IMG/VR virus record: IMGVR_UViG_3300020213_001053
Location: 1-22,632 of that record
Source of the DNA: a virus
Direction: 5' to 3' (one strand)
DNA: 22,632 nucleotides
The notes beneath the pieces are model-generated. The model was not told the origin of the DNA and ran no database searches. It saw nothing but the letters and a program-made list of their open reading frames with translations. Below, piece by piece: positions 4,715 to 20,702 of the stretch. The translations under genes and the position numbers were made by a program. How positions within the stretch are numbered: the stretch's first letter is position 1; each line of letters opens with the position of its first letter.

Positions 4715-5257
4715 ATGAAACATAAAGGAAACATCATGAACCAAGTAATCGTAATCACTCTCCTCGCGTTTGGATTTGCCTCCAGCGCACAGGCATCTAT
4801 GCGTGTGTTCAATCAATCTGGAACGAACCTCGGCAATTACACCGACATGAAAGTGATCGGCGGGCTGACGGTAGCCGCTGTGAGTGGCAAGGCGCAGATT
4901 ACCAAGGTCGGTGCGCTTGAGAACAAGATCACGAACATCGGCCAGGCTGCCGTAACCCTCGTTTCGTCTCAGTGCGGAAGCACGGTATCGAACGACTCGA
5001 CTGCCGTATACACCCTTCCTCTTGCCTCCTCGGCTCAGGGTTGTCGCTTTACGTTCGTAGTAGGCACCGGAGTCGCCAACCTCACCTACGTTCATGTGAA
5101 TCCCAACACCGCCGATACCATCCTCCTCCTCGCCAACGCCGCAGGGGATGCCATCAGTGCCGACGCTACGGGAGAATCTGTAGTTCTTGAGGCCGTATCC
5201 CCCGTTATCTGGGCTCCCATTGGCTCGGAAAAAGGCACCTGGACGGACGTTAACTAA
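4715..5257 (+). CDS. Beta-rich phage structural-type protein with Sec signal peptide
   Basis: The first 27 residues look like a classical signal peptide: a basic start (K2, H3, K4), a hydrophobic core VIVITLLAFGFA (11-22) and an AQA cleavage site at 25-27. The remaining 153 residues are Thr/Val/Ala-rich beta structure with TLPLASSAQGCRFTFV (100-115) and a GTWTDVN end, typical of small virion or decoration proteins next to portal genes. C87 and C110 could form a disulfide after export. I chose the ATG at 4715 because GGAGG at 4702-4706 is well spaced and it supplies the positive n-region. An alternative ATG at 4736, with AAAGGA before it, gives 173 residues without those charges. A secreted product in a head operon is odd. 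Role unknown. Confidence 0.8.
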   Translation: MKHKGNIMNQVIVITLLAFGFASSAQASMRVFNQSGTNLGNYTDMKVIGGLTVAAVSGKAQITKVGALENKITNIGQAAVTLVSSQCGSTVSNDSTAVYTLPLASSAQGCRFTFVVGTGVANLTYVHVNPNTADTILLLANAAGDAISADATGESVVLEAVSPVIWAPIGSEKGTWTDVN

Positions 5258-5259
5258 CA

Positions 5260-5562
5260 ATGAAAAAGCCGCTGATACAGAACGCCGCAGACGAATCTCA
5301 GGTTAAGGAAGCGAAGGAAACCATCCGCATTAGCCGGATGGCGGAACTCAATGCCCTGCGTGCGGCTATGTCGGTCGAAGCATTCCGTAAATGGATCTAT
5401 CCGCGCGTGAATGTCTGCGACCGGATCAGCGTCGATCCCTCTGGGTCCATGACCTATTTCAAAGAGGGAGAGAGAAACGTCGCCCTCAAGATCAAAGCCG
5501 ATCTCTTAGAGGCCGACCCCCAAGCCTACCTATTAATGATGCAGGAGAATTTTCAGAAATGA
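5260..5562 (+). CDS. Bbp19-like phage structural protein
   Basis: This 100-residue protein carries a pattern I associate with the Bbp19 family, found between connector and scaffold genes in BPP-1-like podoviruses. Near the C-terminus, a YFKEGERNVALKI block (66-78) is followed by LLEADPQAYLLMMQEN (82-97). The N-terminal half is helical and charged. There is no signal peptide, in contrast to the gene before it. The gene starts two bases after the upstream stop, with only a weak purine stretch as ribosome-binding site, and its TGA overlaps the scaffold ATG (ATGA at 5559-5562). Its exact place in the virion is not known to me. A head-assembly role is inferred from position. Confidence 0.75.
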   Translation: MKKPLIQNAADESQVKEAKETIRISRMAELNALRAAMSVEAFRKWIYPRVNVCDRISVDPSGSMTYFKEGERNVALKIKADLLEADPQAYLLMMQENFQK

Positions 5563-6191
5563 GTGAACTCACCAACGCAGCTGACGCCACAGCCACCGCT
5601 GCCGAAGTACAACCGACCGCCGAAGTTAAGACTGAATCAACCCCAGTTGAAACGCCTGCGGCCGCAGAACCGGAAAAGAAAGTTGAAGAAGCAGCGGCCA
5701 AGCCAGCAGTACCCGAGAAGTACGAGCTGAAGCTTGCCGAAGGATCGAAGCTAAGCGCCACCGCCGTAGAGGAAGTGTCCGCCCTTGCTAAGGCAAAGGG
5801 CTACACCAACGAACAGGCACAAGAGCTCTTAGATCAGAGACAGACTGCGGTGAGCAGCTACCAAGAACAACTACAACAAGAACTAGCTACGCTTAACGAC
5901 AAGACTTGGAAACAAGAGTTAATTGCGGATAAGGAATTTGGCGGTGCCAAGTTTGACGAGAACATGATTCTCGCTCACTCGGCGGCAGAGAAGTGGTTCG
6001 GCAAGGAATTTGCCGACAGCCTCAAAGCAGCAGGCCTCAATCACAATCCACGACTAATGAAGGGTCTACATCGAATCGCCATGGCGGGCGCAAACGATAC
6101 AGCTGTTTTGCCTGGAAACCAGGATTCCCGAGGGAAGGTCCCTCTGGAGAGGCAGATGTATCCAAAAATGTTTGATAACAAGGAGAGTTAG
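5559..6191 (+). CDS. Scaffolding protein
   Basis: I place the start at ATG 5559, overlapping the previous stop, which gives 210 residues. The frame is open further upstream, but that part only shadows the Bbp19-like gene. The N-terminus is a disordered A/T/E/P-rich segment (about residues 1-50). A long helical, coiled-coil-like region rich in E, Q, L and A follows (about 65-125, including EEVSALAKAKGYTNEQAQEL), and the C-terminal part is helical, ending PLERQMYPKMFD. Acidic low-complexity N-terminus, central coil and position immediately before the major capsid gene fit podovirus scaffolds that direct procapsid assembly and then leave. No protease is seen nearby, so removal by exit rather than cleavage is the simpler guess. 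Confidence 0.85.
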   Translation: MSELTNAADATATAAEVQPTAEVKTESTPVETPAAAEPEKKVEEAAAKPAVPEKYELKLAEGSKLSATAVEEVSALAKAKGYTNEQAQELLDQRQTAVSSYQEQLQQELATLNDKTWKQELIADKEFGGAKFDENMILAHSAAEKWFGKEFADSLKAAGLNHNPRLMKGLHRIAMAGANDTAVLPGNQDSRGKVPLERQMYPKMFDNKES

Positions 6192-12175: not shown

Positions 12176-13876
12176 ATGCCGCAAGTGCCTATAGCACAGA
12201 GGCAGGTTGAGATCGGCGCAGCGCCAGATCTGCGCAGCAACGTCAACGCTCCCATAGAAACCTTTGGCGGTGGGGCGAGCGCTGCCGCTGCGGCGAAGTC
12301 ATCTAATGCTTTGCTTGAGGGTACGACGAAACTCTATGAACAAGAGAGAGACGCGGCGAATGAACGTGTGTTCTTTGACAATGATTTATTGGCTTCACAA
12401 CTCCAGACTAAGATTGAACTCGCAGTAAAGAACATGCACGGGAAGAACGCCGCCGCGGCTCCCGATTATGCGACCAAAGAGTGGAAGGGGGGCATAGATG
12501 AAATCACCAAGGGAATGGACGATACCCAGAAAGGCCACATTCTCGCGGCCGCTCGTGTGAGACGCGCCAACCTATTTAAGTCCACGAACTACCACGTCTC
12601 AACGGAACTCAACAAGTACGACGACGACCAAACGGAAGCCTACGTAAAGCAGGCGAAATCGGAAGCTATGCTGCATCCGAATGATCCGGATCGCGTGTCT
12701 CTCTCTATCTTTCAGCAGGAATCGGCCATTGAAAAGAACGCCATGAAGTATGGCCTCTCGACCCAGGACATCGCGATCAAAAAAGAAGTGGCGAGAAGTA
12801 GCACGCACCTAAGCGTTCTAGATACCATCGCGGAGAGTGATGATCCCGACAAGGACCTCAAGGCCAAGAAGTACTACGACACGCACAAAGATTCCTTTCG
12901 CTTCGATGACATTGAGAAGGCCGGCAAGAGAGTAGAGGCCGCAACGAAACTAGGGCAAACTTATAGGACATCTGACACCATTTTTTCTAAAGCCCGCAAC
13001 CTCACGGATGCCGTAAAGCAAGCCGGGCAGATTCAGGAACCGTCCTTAAGAAAGGCCGTTACGGAAGAGCTCAGCTCCCGGTTCTCCCTTAAAGAGAAGG
13101 CCGAGAAACAGCACGAGGAAGACCTAGAGGACCATTCCGGTAACGTGATCGATAAGACGGGCGACTACGAGAAGATTCCGGAATCGATCAAGCAGCAGCT
13201 TTCAGTGACCGCCAAGTCTCGCCTCAAGGCGTACGCCAAGCAGAAGCGTGAGGGAACGCAGCTTCCCTCTAATACCGACAAGTATCTTGATTTGAGATTG
13301 CTCGCCGCCAATCCCGCCACGAGGGATGACTTTGCCAAAATGTCCATGTCGCAGCTCCGCGGAGAGTTACCGGGGGCCGAGATACTGGCCCTCACGAAAC
13401 TACAGGAGGGGATCAATAAGGGCGACGGGAAAACAAAAGAGACCTTAGGCGGGATTGAAACCACGAATCAGATCGTGATGCGCACTCTTGGGAACGCCGG
13501 CATTAAGGCGGTATCCGACGAGGGGCGCGAGTTCTTTCGTAAGCTCAACCGCTCAGTGGACGAGCAACATGCGGCGACCGGCAAGAAACCATCAGGGCAA
13601 GAGATCCAAGCCCTCATGGATGGGTTCCTTGTGGAAGGAATAGCGGAGAAGAAATCCCTCTTTGGGTTTGATTCCCTCTGGCCCGATTCCAAAAAGAAAG
13701 CCTTTGAATTGGAAGAGGGTAAATCTTTTGTGGACGTTGAGCCCGACAAGATCCCAGCCACCGAGAAGGCCAAGATCACCGACTTCCTTAAGCGGAGCGG
13801 CAAGCCCATTACAAACGAAAACATTCTGAAGATGTTTAATCTAAAGTTCGGGGGCCGTAGTGCCAATCGTTCCTGA
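12176..13876 (+). CDS. Internal virion protein, T7 gp15-like ejection protein
   Basis: The 566-residue product starts MPQVPIAQRQVEIGAAP, a start often seen in gp15-type internal proteins of BPP-1-like podoviruses. Next comes a low-complexity Gly/Ala stretch (31-44), then an almost wholly helical, highly charged body rich in K, D, E and A, including long coiled-coil-like parts (about 60-250). There is no membrane segment, signal or enzyme motif. In T7 the equivalent protein builds the periplasmic tunnel with gp16, and the order gp14-, gp15-, gp16-like is kept here. It starts at the base after the previous stop and overlaps the giant gene downstream by 17 bases, so the three are likely translated as a coupled set. 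Confidence 0.82.
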   Translation: MPQVPIAQRQVEIGAAPDLRSNVNAPIETFGGGASAAAAAKSSNALLEGTTKLYEQERDAANERVFFDNDLLASQLQTKIELAVKNMHGKNAAAAPDYATKEWKGGIDEITKGMDDTQKGHILAAARVRRANLFKSTNYHVSTELNKYDDDQTEAYVKQAKSEAMLHPNDPDRVSLSIFQQESAIEKNAMKYGLSTQDIAIKKEVARSSTHLSVLDTIAESDDPDKDLKAKKYYDTHKDSFRFDDIEKAGKRVEAATKLGQTYRTSDTIFSKARNLTDAVKQAGQIQEPSLRKAVTEELSSRFSLKEKAEKQHEEDLEDHSGNVIDKTGDYEKIPESIKQQLSVTAKSRLKAYAKQKREGTQLPSNTDKYLDLRLLAANPATRDDFAKMSMSQLRGELPGAEILALTKLQEGINKGDGKTKETLGGIETTNQIVMRTLGNAGIKAVSDEGREFFRKLNRSVDEQHAATGKKPSGQEIQALMDGFLVEGIAEKKSLFGFDSLWPDSKKKAFELEEGKSFVDVEPDKIPATEKAKITDFLKRSGKPITNENILKMFNLKFGGRSANRS

Positions 13877-16800
13877 AGAGAGATCGGCATCGGCCAAGAA
13901 GCTGGGGCTCACGAGTAAGCTCGATGACATCGATTCCATTCCTGTTCCGGCGCATCAGGCATCTCCAGGGTCCACGAACATACAAGGCGGGGAGATTGAG
14001 CCCCCTTCTATTAAGGTCGTCGAGGATGTTCCCGAGTACCGTCAACCCTCTGGCAGGAATGAATACGATACGCTGGCTAAAGGCGTGGAGCTCGGCAACG
14101 AGTACGACGCACTAGCGGCCGAGGAGAATGAAGTTAAGAAGGGCATCGTTGCCCAATCCATGTATCTCGGCACGGGGAAAGACCCCGACCGTATGGCTAA
14201 GGTCATGGAGCTATCCCGGCAGGTGAACCTCCCCCCCGACGTGGTAGAGAGAAACTTCGATATGGTTTCCCGGAAGCAGAAACTTGCTTCTAATGATTAC
14301 GATTCCTTGGTGGCAAAGACCCCCGCGTTGGCTCAGTGGCTCGCGGAACCAAATAACGCAGCCGTGGCGCACGACGACGTTGAGGGACTGACCAAGATTG
14401 AGCAGGCGGTTCAGGACCATGGGTTTGCCTTTAAGGCTCTGTCCACTTTAAACCAGGGAATAACTCAAGGGGCAGCGGGAATCGCCCGCATTCCCAACCT
14501 TGCCGGAGCCATCGCGTACGCGCCCTATAACGCCTACCAGAAGTATACTGGCGGGCAGCAAACGCAGTATCCCGCAAGTAACCCGGTAGCCGACTACTTG
14601 GACAAGCAGGCATCTGTTTATAGTGGCGCGGTTCCGGAACTGTCCGGGGATGTCGTTAAGGAATTGTCGGAAGGAAACTACGCCCGCGCGGGGAAGGTGG
14701 CGGGCTACCAGGTCATAGGCCAGATCCCGCAGATAGCCGCAGTTATGATGAGCGGCGGGTCGACCAAGGTTCTCGGCGTATTGGGCGGGATTGCTGCCGC
14801 AGATAGGAACAAAGAATTAACAGACCAAGGGGTAGACCCGTCTACCGGCCTCCCGCTCGCCGTCGCCACGGGCGCGGTTGAGGTTGGCACAGAAGCGCTA
14901 GGAACGTTTCGTTTTATCGAGACCATGGGCAAGGCCCTCGTTAAGAAAGCCGGCAAGCAGGGGGCACTGGAAGTCTTTAAATCGATGGGCAAGGTCATGC
15001 TATCGGGCGGGGCGACAGAAGCCACCGAGGAATCGGTAGGGCAGTTTGCCAAATCCATGATGGATTACTCAACGGGTGTCGATCCCGATGCCTTAAAGAA
15101 ACTCCCTAAAGACGTAGCCAACGCGGGGATACTCGGGTTTCTCACGGGCGGCGCCGCCATGGGGCCAGCCGTAACAACGCAAGCCGCCAAGCGGGTAGCG
15201 CAGAATCAGCAGACCACTCTTGCAAAAGAGCTGTACCTGTCGCTAGGCCAGTCCATAGGCGAAACGAAGACCAATAAAAGATTAAAGCCCGCGATGAAGG
15301 AATTCGTTGAGGGCGTGGTTAAGAATGGCCCGGTCGAATTCGTTTACGTTTCCCCGGAAGCCATGCAGACGTACTTCCAGAACCAGGGCGAAAGCCCCGC
15401 TGGAATGCTGAATGAACTCGGAGTGGGCAGCTTGGTGGATGAGGCTCGGGATACGGGCCAGCCCATAAAGATTCCTCTTTCTACTTGGGTTGAGAAGTTT
15501 GTTGATACCGAGCATTACCTTGGTCTTCAGGACGACATTAAGTTCGACCCTAACGGCGAATCGATCAACGAGCGTAAAGCCAATGACGAGCAAGCCAAGA
15601 CGCAATTAGAGGCGACCGACAAGGAAGCGAATCCCGAGGCGGAAGACAAGCCCGACGAATCGGGCAATGCCGTGCGGAAGATTGTCGAGGATCAGCTTAA
15701 AGCCATTGGGAAGGATCCCAAAGAAGCCGCGCTCGTTGGCTCGCAATTCGACAGGCTTGCACTCGTGGACCCCGCCGGACGCACGGCTCTTCAGATCTTT
15801 AAAGGGTATGGCTTGACCATCGGGGATGGATCGCAACCCATGGCGGCAGAGGCGTCTGCGGCGCAGTCACTCTCGCAAGACTACACTAAGCCCGCCGACA
15901 TCGCGCTTGATTACACTCCTAACGGGGTAGAGCTCAACGATTCGCAGAGGAAAGCCGAGGAATCTCTTGGCCGCACTTTAAGCCAGCCAGATGCGGAAGA
16001 AAAATACGCAGCACTGCCCGAGTCGATGGGCGGCAAGTTCTTAGATACAGATGCCGCGCGAAGCCTTTCGCCCGACTACGCCTCCGGTCGCGAGGGTGCC
16101 ATGCTACATACTCAGAGCACGCACGCGCCGGCCGGACAATTCATCTGGAACCTTTATAAAAAGAAATTGAAGGCAGCGCCCACTGGCTCGGTTGTCCTCA
16201 TGGGCGGTGGCGGCGGTAGCGGCAAGTCTACTTTCTACAAGCCCGATAGCCCAATCGTTAAGGCCGTGAAGGCAGCAGATATTGTTTACGACGGAACGGG
16301 CCAACGCTTTGATGATCAAGATAAAAAGATTAAGCTCGCGCTAGATTCTGGTCGTCCCGTAGTGAACGTGTTTATTTACGCTCCGCTAGATGTAGCGGCG
16401 CCTAGAGCCGTTAAACGATTTGATAAGTCTGGGCGCACGATCCCTCCTAAACAATTTGCCGAGGGGCACGTGAATGCTCTAGCAAATTTCCTGTCTCTCG
16501 CTGAGAAATACAAAGGTCAAAAAGGTTTAATATTTAAGGCGTTTGACAACTCCGGCAAGGCTCCCGTCGAGATCAGTCTGGAAAAACTTAATGAACTGCG
16601 TTATGATAAGGATGTATCGGGAGATGATGCCATCAAGGCGCTCCTCCCGAAAGCGGAAGAGGCCCTAAAAGATGTCGAACGAGAAGTCGAACAAACGCGA
16701 AATAAGTCCCGATCTTCTGAAGAAGCACGAGGAGTTCGTCGACGCCTTTACCAAAGCGGGGCTAGCGAACCTACAGGCAGCAGCGGACCGAGCAGCGTCG

Positions 16801-19800
16801 GAAGAAGCAGCGGCCAAGCCCAAAGCGACCAAAGCCAGCCAGCCCTAAAAGAAGCCGCACTCACGGAGGGCTTCTCTCTATTTCAGGACGGGAAGGACGA
16901 GCCGCGGGGCCGAATCAACTTCGGGAAGAACCGCCAGTTCAACATCGAACTCCTCCGTAAGGCCAATAAATCCACCTTCGCCCACGAGATGACCCACTTC
17001 TATGTAGAAGTAATGGCGGATGTCGTGGCGGATGTCGGCAAGATCCCGGAAGCAGACAGAACCGCTGAGCAGCAAAAGTTCATAGCAGATCAAGAACACC
17101 TAATGGAATGGGCCGGCAATACGGGGACGGGGATCTCCGTTGAGGCCCACGAGAAGATCGCAAGAGGGTTTGAGAAGTACCTATATGAAGGTGTTGCCCC
17201 TACTCCGAGACTGAGGGAGATCTTCGCGCGGTTCCGCACCTGGCTACTCCATGTCTATAAGATGTTCGGCCCCAATGCAGAGTTAACCCCCGAAGTGCGG
17301 GATATCATGGACCGCTGGGTGGCCTCTGACGCCGAGCTGGAATCGGCTCGTCACGAGCAGAATCAATCCCCACTCTTCTCTGATCCTAAATTCCAGGGGA
17401 TGAGCGTAGAGAAAACGAAAGCCTACCTGCGGGCAGCGGAAGAGGCCAAAGAGTACGCCACGACAGAGATCAACAAGAAGCTCCTGGCCCACCATGAAAA
17501 GGTGAGATCAGAGGAATGGGCCAGCGAGAAAGCACTGCTGCTCCCCGAGATTGACGCGCAGGTAAGCGCACAGCCCATCTATATGGCCATTGAATCCCTC
17601 CGCACGGGAACAATGGCGGATGGCTCCCCCTTGAAACTATCCGCTGCGTCTGTCGCAGAGTTCGGGAAAGACGTAGGCAAGGGATTCCCTAAGGGCGTGG
17701 TTGCCACTAAGAAGAGCGGAGCGGGGCTAGGCGTTGCGGTGGCGGCGGAACTCCTAGGATTCGATTCGGCCAATGACTTAATCACAGATCTCACGAATGC
17801 CGAAGATAAGGTAAAGCTAATAGACCGCATGGCCGAGGAAGAAATGGCTCGCCGGTTCCCGGATCTCTTGACGGACGGAACCCTGCCGCAAGAAGTAATG
17901 GAAGTCGTTCATAACCAATCCCGCGCCAAGATGCTGCGGATGGAACTAGAGCACCTGGCATCCAATAACATGCCCGTGCTCAAGGAAGCCATTCGCCGGG
18001 TGGCCCGCCGTGTTCCGACCGAAAGAGCAGTAAGGGAACAGGCCCAAAGAATCATCGGCGGGAAATCCATTAAAGAGATTTCTCCCTATTCCTACCAGAG
18101 ATCGGAAGCAAGATCAGCTAAAGAAGCCGGGATACTCCTCGCTAAAGGAGATATCGATGGGGCGTTTCAAGCCAAGCAAAGGGAACTCTTAAGCCACGAG
18201 TTGTTTCTTGCCGCTACCCAGGCGAAAGAGAACTTCGATAAAACTCTAGAGAAGTTCAAGAAGATTTCCAAGGCCGACGAGAAGCTCGCCAAGACCCGCG
18301 ACATGGATCTGGTTAACGCAGCCAGGGGAATCCTCGCGCAGTTTGGGGTAGGGAAAACGGACGGGACGGTTGAGCAAAGCCTAAAGCAGATCAAGGCCTA
18401 TGACCCGGAAACCTACGCGGCCATCTCTGCATTGGTAGAGGACGCTACGCAGAACGTAGGCCCCATTGACCAAATCTCCTATGACGATTTCGTGGCACTC
18501 AGTGATTCCGTCAACGCCATATGGGACATCTCCCGCTCTATTAAACAAGTAGAGATCGATGGCAATCGCATGGATCTGGAAGAGATTCTCGATATCGGTA
18601 AAGAGAGAATCAAGGAGCTCGCTGGTAGCGGTCCTACCCCTGGAACCAATCAAGCCATCTCGGATGAAGAAAAACGTTCCCTGGGATTAAGGAGCCTCGT
18701 AAGCATGGCCTCAAGGGTCGAGCACTGGGGCTACGCCATGGATAAGGGGAACATCAACGGGTTCTTTACCAAGTACTTAATCCGTCCCATTCTGCAAGGG
18801 ACCACGCAATACCGCTTGAAGCGGATCGATACCATGAAGGCGCTCGCCGAGATTGTTCGGGGGATTGAGATCCTCAACGACAAGCAGGTAATCGACGCCA
18901 CGGAACTCGGTTACAAATTCACGAAACCTGAATTAATCATGGCCATCCTGCATTCCGGAAACGATAGCAACCTTAGAAAACTACTCGACGGTAGACGCTG
19001 GGGAGAGATCGAGGACGGGGAACTCGACCGCTCCAGCTGGGACGCCTTCACCGCTAGAGCCTATGCGGAGGGGATCATCACCAAGTCCGATATGGACGCT
19101 GCCCAAGCGATCTGGGATTTAAACGAGAAGTTAAAACCAGACGCGCAAAAAGCCCATAAGGATATGTTTGGATACTACTTCAATGAGATCACGGCAGATC
19201 CCATTATCACTCCGTGGGGCGAGTACCGCGGCGGGTACATGCCTGCACTTGCCGATCACCATCTGTCGGTGGATTCAAGCATCAGGGAAGGCCAGAGTTC
19301 CATAGAGGAAAGCCCCGCGCAGATGTTCCCGACTACGGGAAGGGGATTCACGAAATCCCGCCAGGAGAGATACACCACTCCTTTATCTCTCGACTTCTCG
19401 AAACTAAAGAACCATGTCGATAAGGTTCTGAAGTTCTCCCATATTGAACCCCGGATTAAGGACGCCACCAAGATCCTCAACAACCGCGGATTCCGTTCCG
19501 AGATCAACCGCTATGACAATGGCGTGGTGAATAATCTTTTGATGCCGTGGCTAAAGCGTGCGGCCACACAGAAAGCATCCGCTCCGGGAGGTAGCAAAGA
19601 GTGGGATAGGATCACTAGCGTTCTCCGTAAAAGCACTTCAATTCAGTTCATGGTTTTGAACGTGACTAACGCCATTCAGAACACGACTTCCATCCTGCCG
19701 TCCATGGTGCGGGTCGGTCCCACTCATTTAGCGGGATCGATGAAGCGGTATGTGTTTTCTCCCAAACGGTACGCCGAGACAGTCATAGAAACGTCTGATT

Positions 19801-20702
19801 ACATGAAGTCCAGGATGGGAGAAAATACACAGGAGATCGTTAAGGACATAGACGATTTCACGCTTAACCCCTCGAAATTCTCTGAGCTAAAAGATTCCGC
19901 CATTCATCACGGATACGCACTAGACCGCATGACGAACGGAATGATGGAGGTTGTTATATGGGGAGCGGCTTTCGATCAGCACATGAGCGAGACGCGGAAC
20001 CACGCGGAATCGGTGCAGTTCGCAGACGCGACCGTAAGGCAATCTGTAGCGGGGATGAACCCCGAGGACATTTCAAGGTTTGAAGCTGGTACTCCCTTTG
20101 TTCGGCTCTTCACTATGTTCTCCACGTTCTTTAATACCCAGGCCAACCTACTTAAGGCTGAACTCGCCATTGCTAAAGAAGAGGGCGGAGTTAGTGGTGC
20201 GGCTCGCGCGGCCAGGGCCGGCGCACTAATTGTCATGTTACCTGCTATCGCGAGCGCCCTCATTTACCGACTTATGAGCGGCAAGGGATTAGATGAGGAT
20301 GATGACGGGGAGTACTTCGACGACTTCCTTGATATCGTTTTTGGCTCCCCCTTCCGGTACATGATCGCCATGGCTCCGGGCGGATCGATTGTAAATTTAG
20401 TGGTGAACCGTTTTAACGATAAACCCTTTGACGATAAGCTCAACCTCTCCCCCGCGTTCTCTGGACTAGAAAAGGCAGCTGGCGCAGTGCCGTCCATTTA
20501 CAGCGCAGTGGCCGAGGGCGGCAGCGCATCCAAAGCATTGCGCGAGGGATTGGTCGCCCTAGGATTGGCAACCGGTTTACCGCTCGCTCCCATAGGAAAA
20601 CCCCTCGGGTACATCGCGGATGTGGAAAGTAGAAAGGCCAAACCCACTGGTCCCATCGACTATTCACGCGGCCTCATTACAGGACAACCTGGGAAAAAAT
20701 AA
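13860..20702 (+). CDS. Giant ejection protein (gp16-like, polyvalent) with zeta-toxin-like and zincin modules
   Basis: The 2280 residues start at GTG 13860 behind GGGGG at 13850-13854. Order of parts: a leader with three NxYDxL repeats (67, 80, 145); Gly/Ala-rich hydrophobic segments near 200-215, 286-315 and 419-440; a polyvalent-type region (about 490-565, FVYVSPEAMQTYF and IPLSTWVEKF); a zeta-like kinase (about 716-940, P-loop 782-791, K789, D811, R853, R859); an S/G/Q-rich linker (940-1000); a zincin with HEMTH at 1042-1046 and E1105 as possible third ligand; a long helical middle; and a C-terminal polyvalent region with one membrane helix (about 2118-2140) and a GPIDYSRGLITG end. It is the third ejection gene, where T7 has gp16. 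I see no transglycosylase motif. Virion location is inferred from gene order. Confidence 0.9.
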   Translation: MPIVPEERSASAKKLGLTSKLDDIDSIPVPAHQASPGSTNIQGGEIEPPSIKVVEDVPEYRQPSGRNEYDTLAKGVELGNEYDALAAEENEVKKGIVAQSMYLGTGKDPDRMAKVMELSRQVNLPPDVVERNFDMVSRKQKLASNDYDSLVAKTPALAQWLAEPNNAAVAHDDVEGLTKIEQAVQDHGFAFKALSTLNQGITQGAAGIARIPNLAGAIAYAPYNAYQKYTGGQQTQYPASNPVADYLDKQASVYSGAVPELSGDVVKELSEGNYARAGKVAGYQVIGQIPQIAAVMMSGGSTKVLGVLGGIAAADRNKELTDQGVDPSTGLPLAVATGAVEVGTEALGTFRFIETMGKALVKKAGKQGALEVFKSMGKVMLSGGATEATEESVGQFAKSMMDYSTGVDPDALKKLPKDVANAGILGFLTGGAAMGPAVTTQAAKRVAQNQQTTLAKELYLSLGQSIGETKTNKRLKPAMKEFVEGVVKNGPVEFVYVSPEAMQTYFQNQGESPAGMLNELGVGSLVDEARDTGQPIKIPLSTWVEKFVDTEHYLGLQDDIKFDPNGESINERKANDEQAKTQLEATDKEANPEAEDKPDESGNAVRKIVEDQLKAIGKDPKEAALVGSQFDRLALVDPAGRTALQIFKGYGLTIGDGSQPMAAEASAAQSLSQDYTKPADIALDYTPNGVELNDSQRKAEESLGRTLSQPDAEEKYAALPESMGGKFLDTDAARSLSPDYASGREGAMLHTQSTHAPAGQFIWNLYKKKLKAAPTGSVVLMGGGGGSGKSTFYKPDSPIVKAVKAADIVYDGTGQRFDDQDKKIKLALDSGRPVVNVFIYAPLDVAAPRAVKRFDKSGRTIPPKQFAEGHVNALANFLSLAEKYKGQKGLIFKAFDNSGKAPVEISLEKLNELRYDKDVSGDDAIKALLPKAEEALKDVEREVEQTRNKSRSSEEARGVRRRLYQSGASEPTGSSGPSSVGRSSGQAQSDQSQPALKEAALTEGFSLFQDGKDEPRGRINFGKNRQFNIELLRKANKSTFAHEMTHFYVEVMADVVADVGKIPEADRTAEQQKFIADQEHLMEWAGNTGTGISVEAHEKIARGFEKYLYEGVAPTPRLREIFARFRTWLLHVYKMFGPNAELTPEVRDIMDRWVASDAELESARHEQNQSPLFSDPKFQGMSVEKTKAYLRAAEEAKEYATTEINKKLLAHHEKVRSEEWASEKALLLPEIDAQVSAQPIYMAIESLRTGTMADGSPLKLSAASVAEFGKDVGKGFPKGVVATKKSGAGLGVAVAAELLGFDSANDLITDLTNAEDKVKLIDRMAEEEMARRFPDLLTDGTLPQEVMEVVHNQSRAKMLRMELEHLASNNMPVLKEAIRRVARRVPTERAVREQAQRIIGGKSIKEISPYSYQRSEARSAKEAGILLAKGDIDGAFQAKQRELLSHELFLAATQAKENFDKTLEKFKKISKADEKLAKTRDMDLVNAARGILAQFGVGKTDGTVEQSLKQIKAYDPETYAAISALVEDATQNVGPIDQISYDDFVALSDSVNAIWDISRSIKQVEIDGNRMDLEEILDIGKERIKELAGSGPTPGTNQAISDEEKRSLGLRSLVSMASRVEHWGYAMDKGNINGFFTKYLIRPILQGTTQYRLKRIDTMKALAEIVRGIEILNDKQVIDATELGYKFTKPELIMAILHSGNDSNLRKLLDGRRWGEIEDGELDRSSWDAFTARAYAEGIITKSDMDAAQAIWDLNEKLKPDAQKAHKDMFGYYFNEITADPIITPWGEYRGGYMPALADHHLSVDSSIREGQSSIEESPAQMFPTTGRGFTKSRQERYTTPLSLDFSKLKNHVDKVLKFSHIEPRIKDATKILNNRGFRSEINRYDNGVVNNLLMPWLKRAATQKASAPGGSKEWDRITSVLRKSTSIQFMVLNVTNAIQNTTSILPSMVRVGPTHLAGSMKRYVFSPKRYAETVIETSDYMKSRMGENTQEIVKDIDDFTLNPSKFSELKDSAIHHGYALDRMTNGMMEVVIWGAAFDQHMSETRNHAESVQFADATVRQSVAGMNPEDISRFEAGTPFVRLFTMFSTFFNTQANLLKAELAIAKEEGGVSGAARAARAGALIVMLPAIASALIYRLMSGKGLDEDDDGEYFDDFLDIVFGSPFRYMIAMAPGGSIVNLVVNRFNDKPFDDKLNLSPAFSGLEKAAGAVPSIYSAVAEGGSASKALREGLVALGLATGLPLAPIGKPLGYIADVESRKAKPTGPIDYSRGLITGQPGKK
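16005..16679 (+). other. Zeta-toxin-like kinase module inside the giant ejection protein
   Basis: The segment begins YAALPESMGGKFLDTDAARSLSPDY (shown here as residues 716 onward), the same opening used by free-standing proteobacterial zeta-type proteins. It continues with a HAPAGQFIWNLYKKKL helix, VVLMGGGGGSGKSTF (P-loop 782-791), IVYDGTGQ (D811) and RFDKSGRTIPP (R853, R859). Zeta toxins phosphorylate UDP-N-acetylglucosamine and stop cell-wall synthesis; some relatives use other nucleotide sugars. Lysine, aspartate and two arginines expected for catalysis are present, so it looks intact. Several rows here (16321, 16501, 16561) count 38-43% GC, against 50-65% in the flanking rows I counted, which hints at acquisition. 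Activity is not shown. Confidence 0.8.
16672..16848 (+). CDS. Nested 58-residue ORF overlapping the zeta/zincin linker
   Basis: In another frame from the giant gene, ATG 16672 to TAA 16846-16848 gives 58 codons, with GGAAGAGG at 16655-16662 nine bases upstream. The product begins MSNEKSNKREISPDLLKKH and continues EEFVDAFTKAGLANLQAAAD, then ends in an AEEAAAKPKATKAS-like tail. It reads as a charged helical protein. By contrast, the giant frame over the same bases is low-complexity S/G/Q/R with five CGA codons and about ten AGC codons, as if shaped by the other frame. It may be a real overprinted gene, a relic of a small gene that accompanied a free-standing zeta gene, or a chance ORF. It is too short for many gene finders. 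No family recognised. Confidence 0.4.
   Translation: MSNEKSNKREISPDLLKKHEEFVDAFTKAGLANLQAAADRAASEEAAAKPKATKASQP

What the first reader, a model, noticed from the sequence alone, without database searches (positions are those of the whole stretch)
16672..16848. Overprinted 58-codon ORF in the linker after the zeta module
A short ORF with a good ribosome-binding site lies in another frame exactly where the giant protein becomes low-complexity. The alternative product looks like a normal helical protein, while the main frame is S/G/Q/R-rich with unusual CGA and AGC codons. This suggests the other frame shaped the sequence: either an active small gene (perhaps a zeta partner) or a relic carried in with a zeta gene.
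Basis: partly seen in the sequence, partly recalled or inferred. Interest (0 to 1): 0.75.

Follow-up and report, generated by a model that had tools for sequence, protein, structure and literature searches.

The report
Hidden antitoxin-like gene inside phage toxin
A 58-codon gene lies in a second reading frame inside a giant phage protein, just after its toxin-like kinase domain; related phages carry a small second-frame gene at the same spot and preserve it, so it is probably a hidden antitoxin that annotation has missed.

Summary
ORF 16672-16848 (58 aa, +1 frame of the 2280-aa protein) is ordinary in length (P about 0.96 under synonymous shuffling), but codon preference switches frame exactly over it (z = 5-6). 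The main-frame linker there is CGA/AGC-loaded.

The interpretation 'zeta partner' is largely supported. Of 119 distinct zeta-kinase loci, 113 carry an ATG-started +1-frame ORF across the zeta 3' end. Where zeta is fused into longer proteins, 33 of 37 keep it (12 expected), including L127 and L147, long homologues of this giant. In close fused pairs the nested frame is under purifying selection (pN/pS 0.42) and the main frame is not (1.50). Giants with the same zincin module but no zeta mostly lack the signal.

The window's zeta models as a near-match to gonococcal zeta-1 (Z 21.5, next about 10). That toxin's antitoxin, epsilon-1, is a 61-aa, extended, two-helix peptide listed after zeta-1. I conclude the ORF is probably a nested, epsilon-1-like antitoxin gene, and the polar linker is its out-of-frame shadow.

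Antitoxin activity is inferred, not tested. Similarity of the 58-mer to the other partners is not significant (p about 0.03 at best).

The parts
16672..16848 (+). Nested 58-codon ORF (+1 frame): putative epsilon-1-like antitoxin or zeta partner
   Evidence: Intact ORF; codon-usage switch; same frame and near-identical start position as partners in relatives
16655..16662 (+). GGAAGAGG, candidate ribosome-binding site, 9 nt before the ATG
   Evidence: Read directly; RBS-like motif before 73% of relatives' starts
15999..16746 (+). Zeta-1-type kinase domain of the giant (region modelled)
   Evidence: Pfam Zeta_toxin; AF2 pLDDT 90; PDB 6EPH Z 21.5; invariant residues kept
16734..16845 (+). Main-frame S/G/Q/R-rich linker, the out-of-frame shadow of the nested ORF
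   Evidence: AGC/CGA excess; low main-frame codon score
16848..17399 (+). Zincin-like module (HEMTH) following the linker in the main frame
   Evidence: Homology in 43 phage records and viral contigs
14157..14438 (+). LPD22 domain of the giant
   Evidence: Pfam PF18834, residues 100-193
13860..20702 (+). Host gene: 2280-aa giant polyvalent protein
   Evidence: ORF; phrog_9880; between an endolysin-like gene and a tail fibre gene

Best explanation
The 58-codon ORF is a real gene nested out of frame in the giant protein. It encodes the small antitoxin-like partner of the zeta-1-type kinase domain that ends over its first codons. Ancestrally the pair was an ordinary overlapping operon (zeta gene, then a 50-75 aa partner starting about 20-30 codons before the zeta stop). 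When zeta was fused to downstream modules the zeta stop was lost, the zeta frame read on through the partner gene, and the polar linker is that read-through. Proposed mechanism, inferred: the partner is made from the same mRNA by internal initiation, binds zeta as an extended helical peptide and blocks its kinase site in the producing cell; the virion-borne giant is then ejected without it, so that zeta can act on UDP-sugar cell-wall precursors in the next host.
For: Codon preference switches frame exactly over the ORF. 113 of 119 distinct zeta loci have an ATG +1 ORF across the zeta 3' end, with starts clustered at the same place. 33 of 37 fused loci keep it against 12.2 expected with the main protein fixed. 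Long homologues of the giant, L127 and L147, have it at the same junction. In fused pairs nested-frame pN/pS is 0.42 and main-frame 1.50 (frame-neutral check). Zincin giants without zeta mostly lack the signal, and Pfam-type zetas lack a consistent one. The zeta model matches gonococcal zeta-1 far better than any other fold, and its antitoxin epsilon-1 is a 61-aa extended peptide listed after zeta-1.
Against: No significant sequence similarity of the 58-mer to the partners (0.9 bits; p = 0.025; 5 of 112 at p <= 0.05) or of the partner profile to epsilon-1 in the PDB. Nested sequences in relatives fall into more than one class. Selection was measured in relatives, not in the window's own lineage. 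Relatives are not independent samples. Polar linkers can inflate the codon score (about 5 of 45 controls exceed 3). No expression, binding or toxicity data exist.
Confidence: 0.62

Rival explanations
1. The nested ORF is a real, translated overlapping gene, but not an antitoxin: a chaperone or assembly factor for the giant protein, or a co-packaged small protein.
For: Same evidence for a real gene. Arc1, the downstream partner of the zeta-like AvrRxo1, was first named a chaperone. The giant is encoded among virion genes.
Against: The partner also accompanies free-standing zeta genes that are not part of giants, and it follows zeta rather than the zincin.
Confidence: 0.2
2. It is a relic: the partner gene came in with the zeta module and is no longer used in this phage.
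For: Sequence similarity to other partners is lost, and the window zeta is a divergent member (about 35% identical). No close relative shows conservation in this lineage.
Against: The frame is intact with start, stop and RBS-like site, and its codon signal is among the stronger ones (z 6.0). The zeta keeps the family's invariant residues. Relatives keep the nested frame under selection.
Confidence: 0.12
3. Chance ORF in a polar, GC-rich linker; the composition only looks like coding.
For: Length is unremarkable, and about half of zeta-less zincin giants also have a +1 ORF of at least 40 aa near that junction.
Against: Codon signal, conserved start position and frame, excess over synonymous resampling, frame-specific selection in relatives, and low scores of control linkers (median z about 0.7).
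Confidence: 0.05

Closest known systems
Gonococcal epsilon-1/zeta-1 toxin-antitoxin (PDB 6EPG/6EPH/6EPI; PMC5923241, PMC2848598)
   Same: Same kinase fold (Z 21.5 over 216 residues). A small partner (58 aa here, 61 aa for epsilon-1) placed after the toxin domain.
   Different: Here the partner is nested out of frame inside a longer, multi-module phage protein. No sequence similarity to epsilon-1 was found, the OB domain of zeta-1 is not seen, and inhibition is untested.
AvrRxo1-Arc1 (PMC4938570)
   Same: Zeta-like kinase with its small antitoxin gene downstream of the toxin gene.
   Different: Arc1 is about 98 aa and the paper describes a separate downstream gene; the fold match is much weaker (Z about 10).
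Classical epsilon/zeta and PezAT
   Same: Zeta kinase inhibited by a small protein.
   Different: Epsilon is a three-helix bundle forming a heterotetramer, and the fold match to these zetas is weaker (Z about 10). That their antitoxin gene is normally upstream is stated for such systems.
Polyvalent proteins of phages (Iyer et al. 2017, PMC5512222)
   Same: Giant multidomain protein with LPD22, zeta and zincin; the paper notes zeta-toxin-like kinases in such proteins and fused to MuF domains in phages.
   Different: Text searches of that paper for overlap, frame and antitoxin gave no small overlapping gene after zeta.

Membership tests
Epsilon-1/zeta-1 type toxin-antitoxin | Toxin with the rewired zeta-1 kinase fold | tested here: met
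   AF2 model of the window domain matches 6EPH at Z 21.5, rmsd 2.3, 216 residues; next folds about 10
Epsilon-1/zeta-1 type toxin-antitoxin | Small antitoxin gene of about 60 codons after the toxin | tested here: met
   58 codons, starting under the zeta 3' end; epsilon-1 is 186 bp and listed after zeta-1
Epsilon-1/zeta-1 type toxin-antitoxin | Antitoxin related in sequence to epsilon-1 | tested here: inconclusive
   Partner profile A11 found no epsilon-1 chain in the PDB, but partners are very divergent among themselves
Epsilon-1/zeta-1 type toxin-antitoxin | Partner binds zeta and blocks its kinase; toxicity rescued | not testable with these tools
   Needs co-expression or a complex structure; the frameshift-read chain model was uninformative
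Phage zeta partner family defined here | +1 frame, ATG at the conserved place, spanning the zeta 3' end | tested here: met
   Window start at -68 against mode -65/-62
Phage zeta partner family defined here | Sequence match to the partner profile | tested here: inconclusive
   0.9 bits to free-standing profile, no better than shuffles; 6.1 bits to fused profile, p = 0.025
Classical epsilon/zeta (PezAT) | Epsilon or PezA-type three-helix antitoxin | not tested
   No antitoxin of that type was searched for upstream; Pfam gave none for the 58-mer
AvrRxo1-Arc1 | Separate downstream antitoxin gene of about 98 aa | tested here: not met
   58 aa and nested in the same coding region
Polyvalent protein (host gene) | Giant multidomain phage protein with LPD and zincin-like domains | tested here: met
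   LPD22 and Zeta_toxin; HEMTH zincin region

The most novel reading that the evidence does not exclude
Phage giant virion proteins commonly carry a zeta-1-type toxin domain with its own antitoxin gene nested out of frame inside the toxin's coding sequence. The producing cell is protected by obligatory co-transcription, while the ejected toxin arrives without its antidote.
Probability: 0.45. Interest if true: 0.87.

Novelty: new variant of a known kind. Interest (0 to 1): 0.74.

Why it matters
It would be a toxin-antitoxin pair whose antitoxin gene is nested, in another frame, inside the toxin's own coding sequence. The arrangement recurs across diverse phage contigs, and neither the 58-mer nor the partners tested have a significant family match. 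It offers an explanation for how a virus can make a cell-wall-poisoning virion protein without killing its factory too early, and for the odd polar linkers in these giants. It is also a concrete example of domain fusion by read-through of an overlapping gene, which supplies new linker sequence, and it can be tested directly in laboratory E. coli.

Tried and rejected
ORF length as evidence: rejected, chance explains it. tblastn of the 58-mer against phages, plasmids and viral contigs: nothing. Pfam, PHROG and NCBIfam on the 58-mer and partners: no significant match. A first partner profile from free-standing zetas did not recognise the 58-mer; a fused-only profile gave p = 0.025; pairwise tests gave no excess. 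Two compensating frameshifts or assembly errors: rejected, because relatives show the same nested arrangement with start and stop, and free-standing zetas show it as an overlapping operon. Nested ORF tied to the zincin rather than zeta: not supported by zeta-less giants. Same pattern in Pfam-type zetas: not consistent; 9 of 18 have some +1 ORF near the 3' end, about 5 straddling the stop, with no shared motif. Docking by a frameshift-read zeta+partner chain (L113): partner tail pLDDT 36-50, uninformative. Sphingomonad plasmid zetas have a 67-aa +1 ORF at the same place, but one divergent pair gave no frame-specific selection signal. PADLOC was not completed (coordinate error).

Full report
What was checked. 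The window is an IMG/VR virus record of 22632 bases. It carries terminase, head-tail adaptor, major head protein, two tail proteins, an internal virion protein, an endolysin-like protein, a 2280-aa giant (13860-20702) and a tail fibre. The giant has LPD22, a zeta-toxin kinase domain and a zincin-like module (HEMTH), and matches phrog_9880. The nested ORF 16672-16848 is real as described, in the +1 frame between zeta and zincin.

Is it more than chance? Its length is not: 96% of synonymous shuffles of the giant contain a +1 ATG ORF at least as long. Its coding signature is. Codon log-odds switch from the main to the +1 frame over about 16650-16800 and back. Among 1170 windows of 58 codons in the +1 frame of the window's genes, only two score as high, and they sit on a true gene overlap at 5260-5562. 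The main frame there contains 10 AGC and 5 CGA codons where 0.85 and 1.4 are expected.

Relatives. No relative of the 58-mer was found by sequence in phages, plasmids or viral contigs. A zeta alignment (A2) recovered 80 viral loci and one bacterial contig, and a second alignment headed by the window's zeta recovered 80 viral loci, some of them the same contigs. In the first set, 82 of 83 loci have a +1-frame ORF of at least 35 aa at the zeta 3' end and none has a +2-frame one. In the merged set, 113 of 119 distinct loci have an ATG-started +1 ORF spanning the zeta end. Starts cluster at -65/-62 relative to the zeta profile end, with others at -101, -86 and -80; the window's is at -68. In free-standing zetas it is a 3'-overlapping gene of about 49-77 aa with a C-terminal motif like LAxxLxxALNxAV.

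Fused relatives. In 37 loci zeta is followed in frame by further protein. 33 of them keep an ATG-started +1 ORF of at least 45 aa starting in the same region. Resampling synonymous codons with the main protein fixed predicts 12.2. This is conservative in one way (the main linker itself was shaped by the overlap) and generous in another (loci are related). In 33 fused loci the nested frame's codon score is on average 5.0 sd above the gene's own +1 background, and the main frame is 1.6 sd below its own. Two homologues of the window giant, L127 (24% over 2278 aligned positions) and L147 (25% over 1764), have the nested ORF at the same zeta-zincin junction.

Selection. In close fused pairs, past the zeta core, pN/pS is 0.42 in the nested frame and 1.50 in the main frame. 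A frame-neutral DNA alignment shows the third-position excess in the nested frame for the two closest groups, L105/L110/L124 and L115/L119/L130. The more divergent pairs L121/L157 and L148/L132 do not show it.

Controls. Among giants with the same zincin module but no zeta, +1 ORFs near the junction are common (40 of 78), but their codon scores are low (median about 0.7). Five of about 45 exceed 3, two of them copies of one sequence, and none exceeds the window's 6.0, the highest being 5.9. Pfam-type zetas from bacterial genomes lack a consistent 3' +1 ORF.

What the zeta domain is. AlphaFold2 with 32 sequences gave pLDDT 90. The best PDB match is zeta-1 of gonococcal epsilon-1/zeta-1 (6EPH): Z 21.5, 216 residues, rmsd 2.3. 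Classical zetas, polynucleotide kinases and AvrRxo1 are at about 10. Invariant residues of the family, Walker A included, are kept. In the gonococcal system zeta-1 phosphorylates UDP-activated sugars and lyses E. coli, a P-loop lysine mutant does not, and epsilon-1 rescues. Epsilon-1 is unrelated in fold to classical epsilons and lies as an extended peptide with two helices over the putative ATP site (PMC5923241). Epsilon-1 is 186 bp and is listed after zeta-1 in a putative operon (PMC2848598).

Best explanation. The nested ORF is the zeta partner, most likely an epsilon-1-like antitoxin, and the polar linker is its out-of-frame shadow left when zeta was fused to downstream modules. Shown: ORF, coding signature, positional conservation in relatives, selection in some relatives, zeta subclass by predicted fold. 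Inferred: that the window's ORF is translated, that it binds and inhibits zeta, and that the giant is ejected without it. Sequence similarity of the 58-mer to the partners is not significant, nor was similarity of the partners to epsilon-1 found, so homology rests on position, frame, size and coding signal.

Comparison and novelty. Iyer et al. describe zeta-toxin-like kinases in polyvalent proteins (PMC5512222); text searches of that paper gave no overlapping small gene. Literature searches for nested or overlapping antitoxins of zeta toxins returned nothing equivalent in the open-access library held, which leaves out most subscription journals. I rate it a new variant of a known kind: a type II toxin-antitoxin pair whose antitoxin would be nested out of frame in the toxin's coding sequence inside a phage giant.

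Noticed in passing
window 5260-5562 and 5391-6191: ORF 5260-5562 (phrog_528) overlaps the listed start of ORF 5391-6191; codon scores favour the former up to about 5480, so the second gene probably starts later than listed.
   Followed up: partly
L105, L110, L124 about 5665-5892; L164 2147-2374: A second class of nested partner (GYPxAxxxEIQxLxxAEKxxGYPPxDLxHAxxIL) occupies the same slot after zeta, in phage and bacterial loci.
   Followed up: partly
L247 3129-3332, L248 3129-3332, L249 2383-2586: Sphingomonad plasmid zeta-like genes carry an unannotated 67-aa +1-frame ORF nested near the 3' part of the gene, the same length in diverged plasmids.
   Followed up: partly
L227 3928-4194: A 2478-aa giant has zeta, a nested +1 ORF ending WAQSIVDNLNRQTAVK, then what looks like an ADP-ribosyltransferase-like stretch (YHGTPHEVERF...), then the zincin: a different module order with the nested ORF still next to zeta.
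   Followed up: no
L183/L184 about 4753-4944; L234 4642-4986: Zeta-less zincin giants with high-scoring +1 ORFs in other linkers (z 4.5-5.9); other modules may have nested partners too, or this may be linker composition.
   Followed up: no
L010, L015, L045 and others, about 80-400 nt after the zeta stop: Free-standing phage zeta genes are often followed by a small Cys-rich protein (CxxCxFF...GSCRRYP...DWCGE) right after the partner, suggesting a conserved cassette.
   Followed up: no
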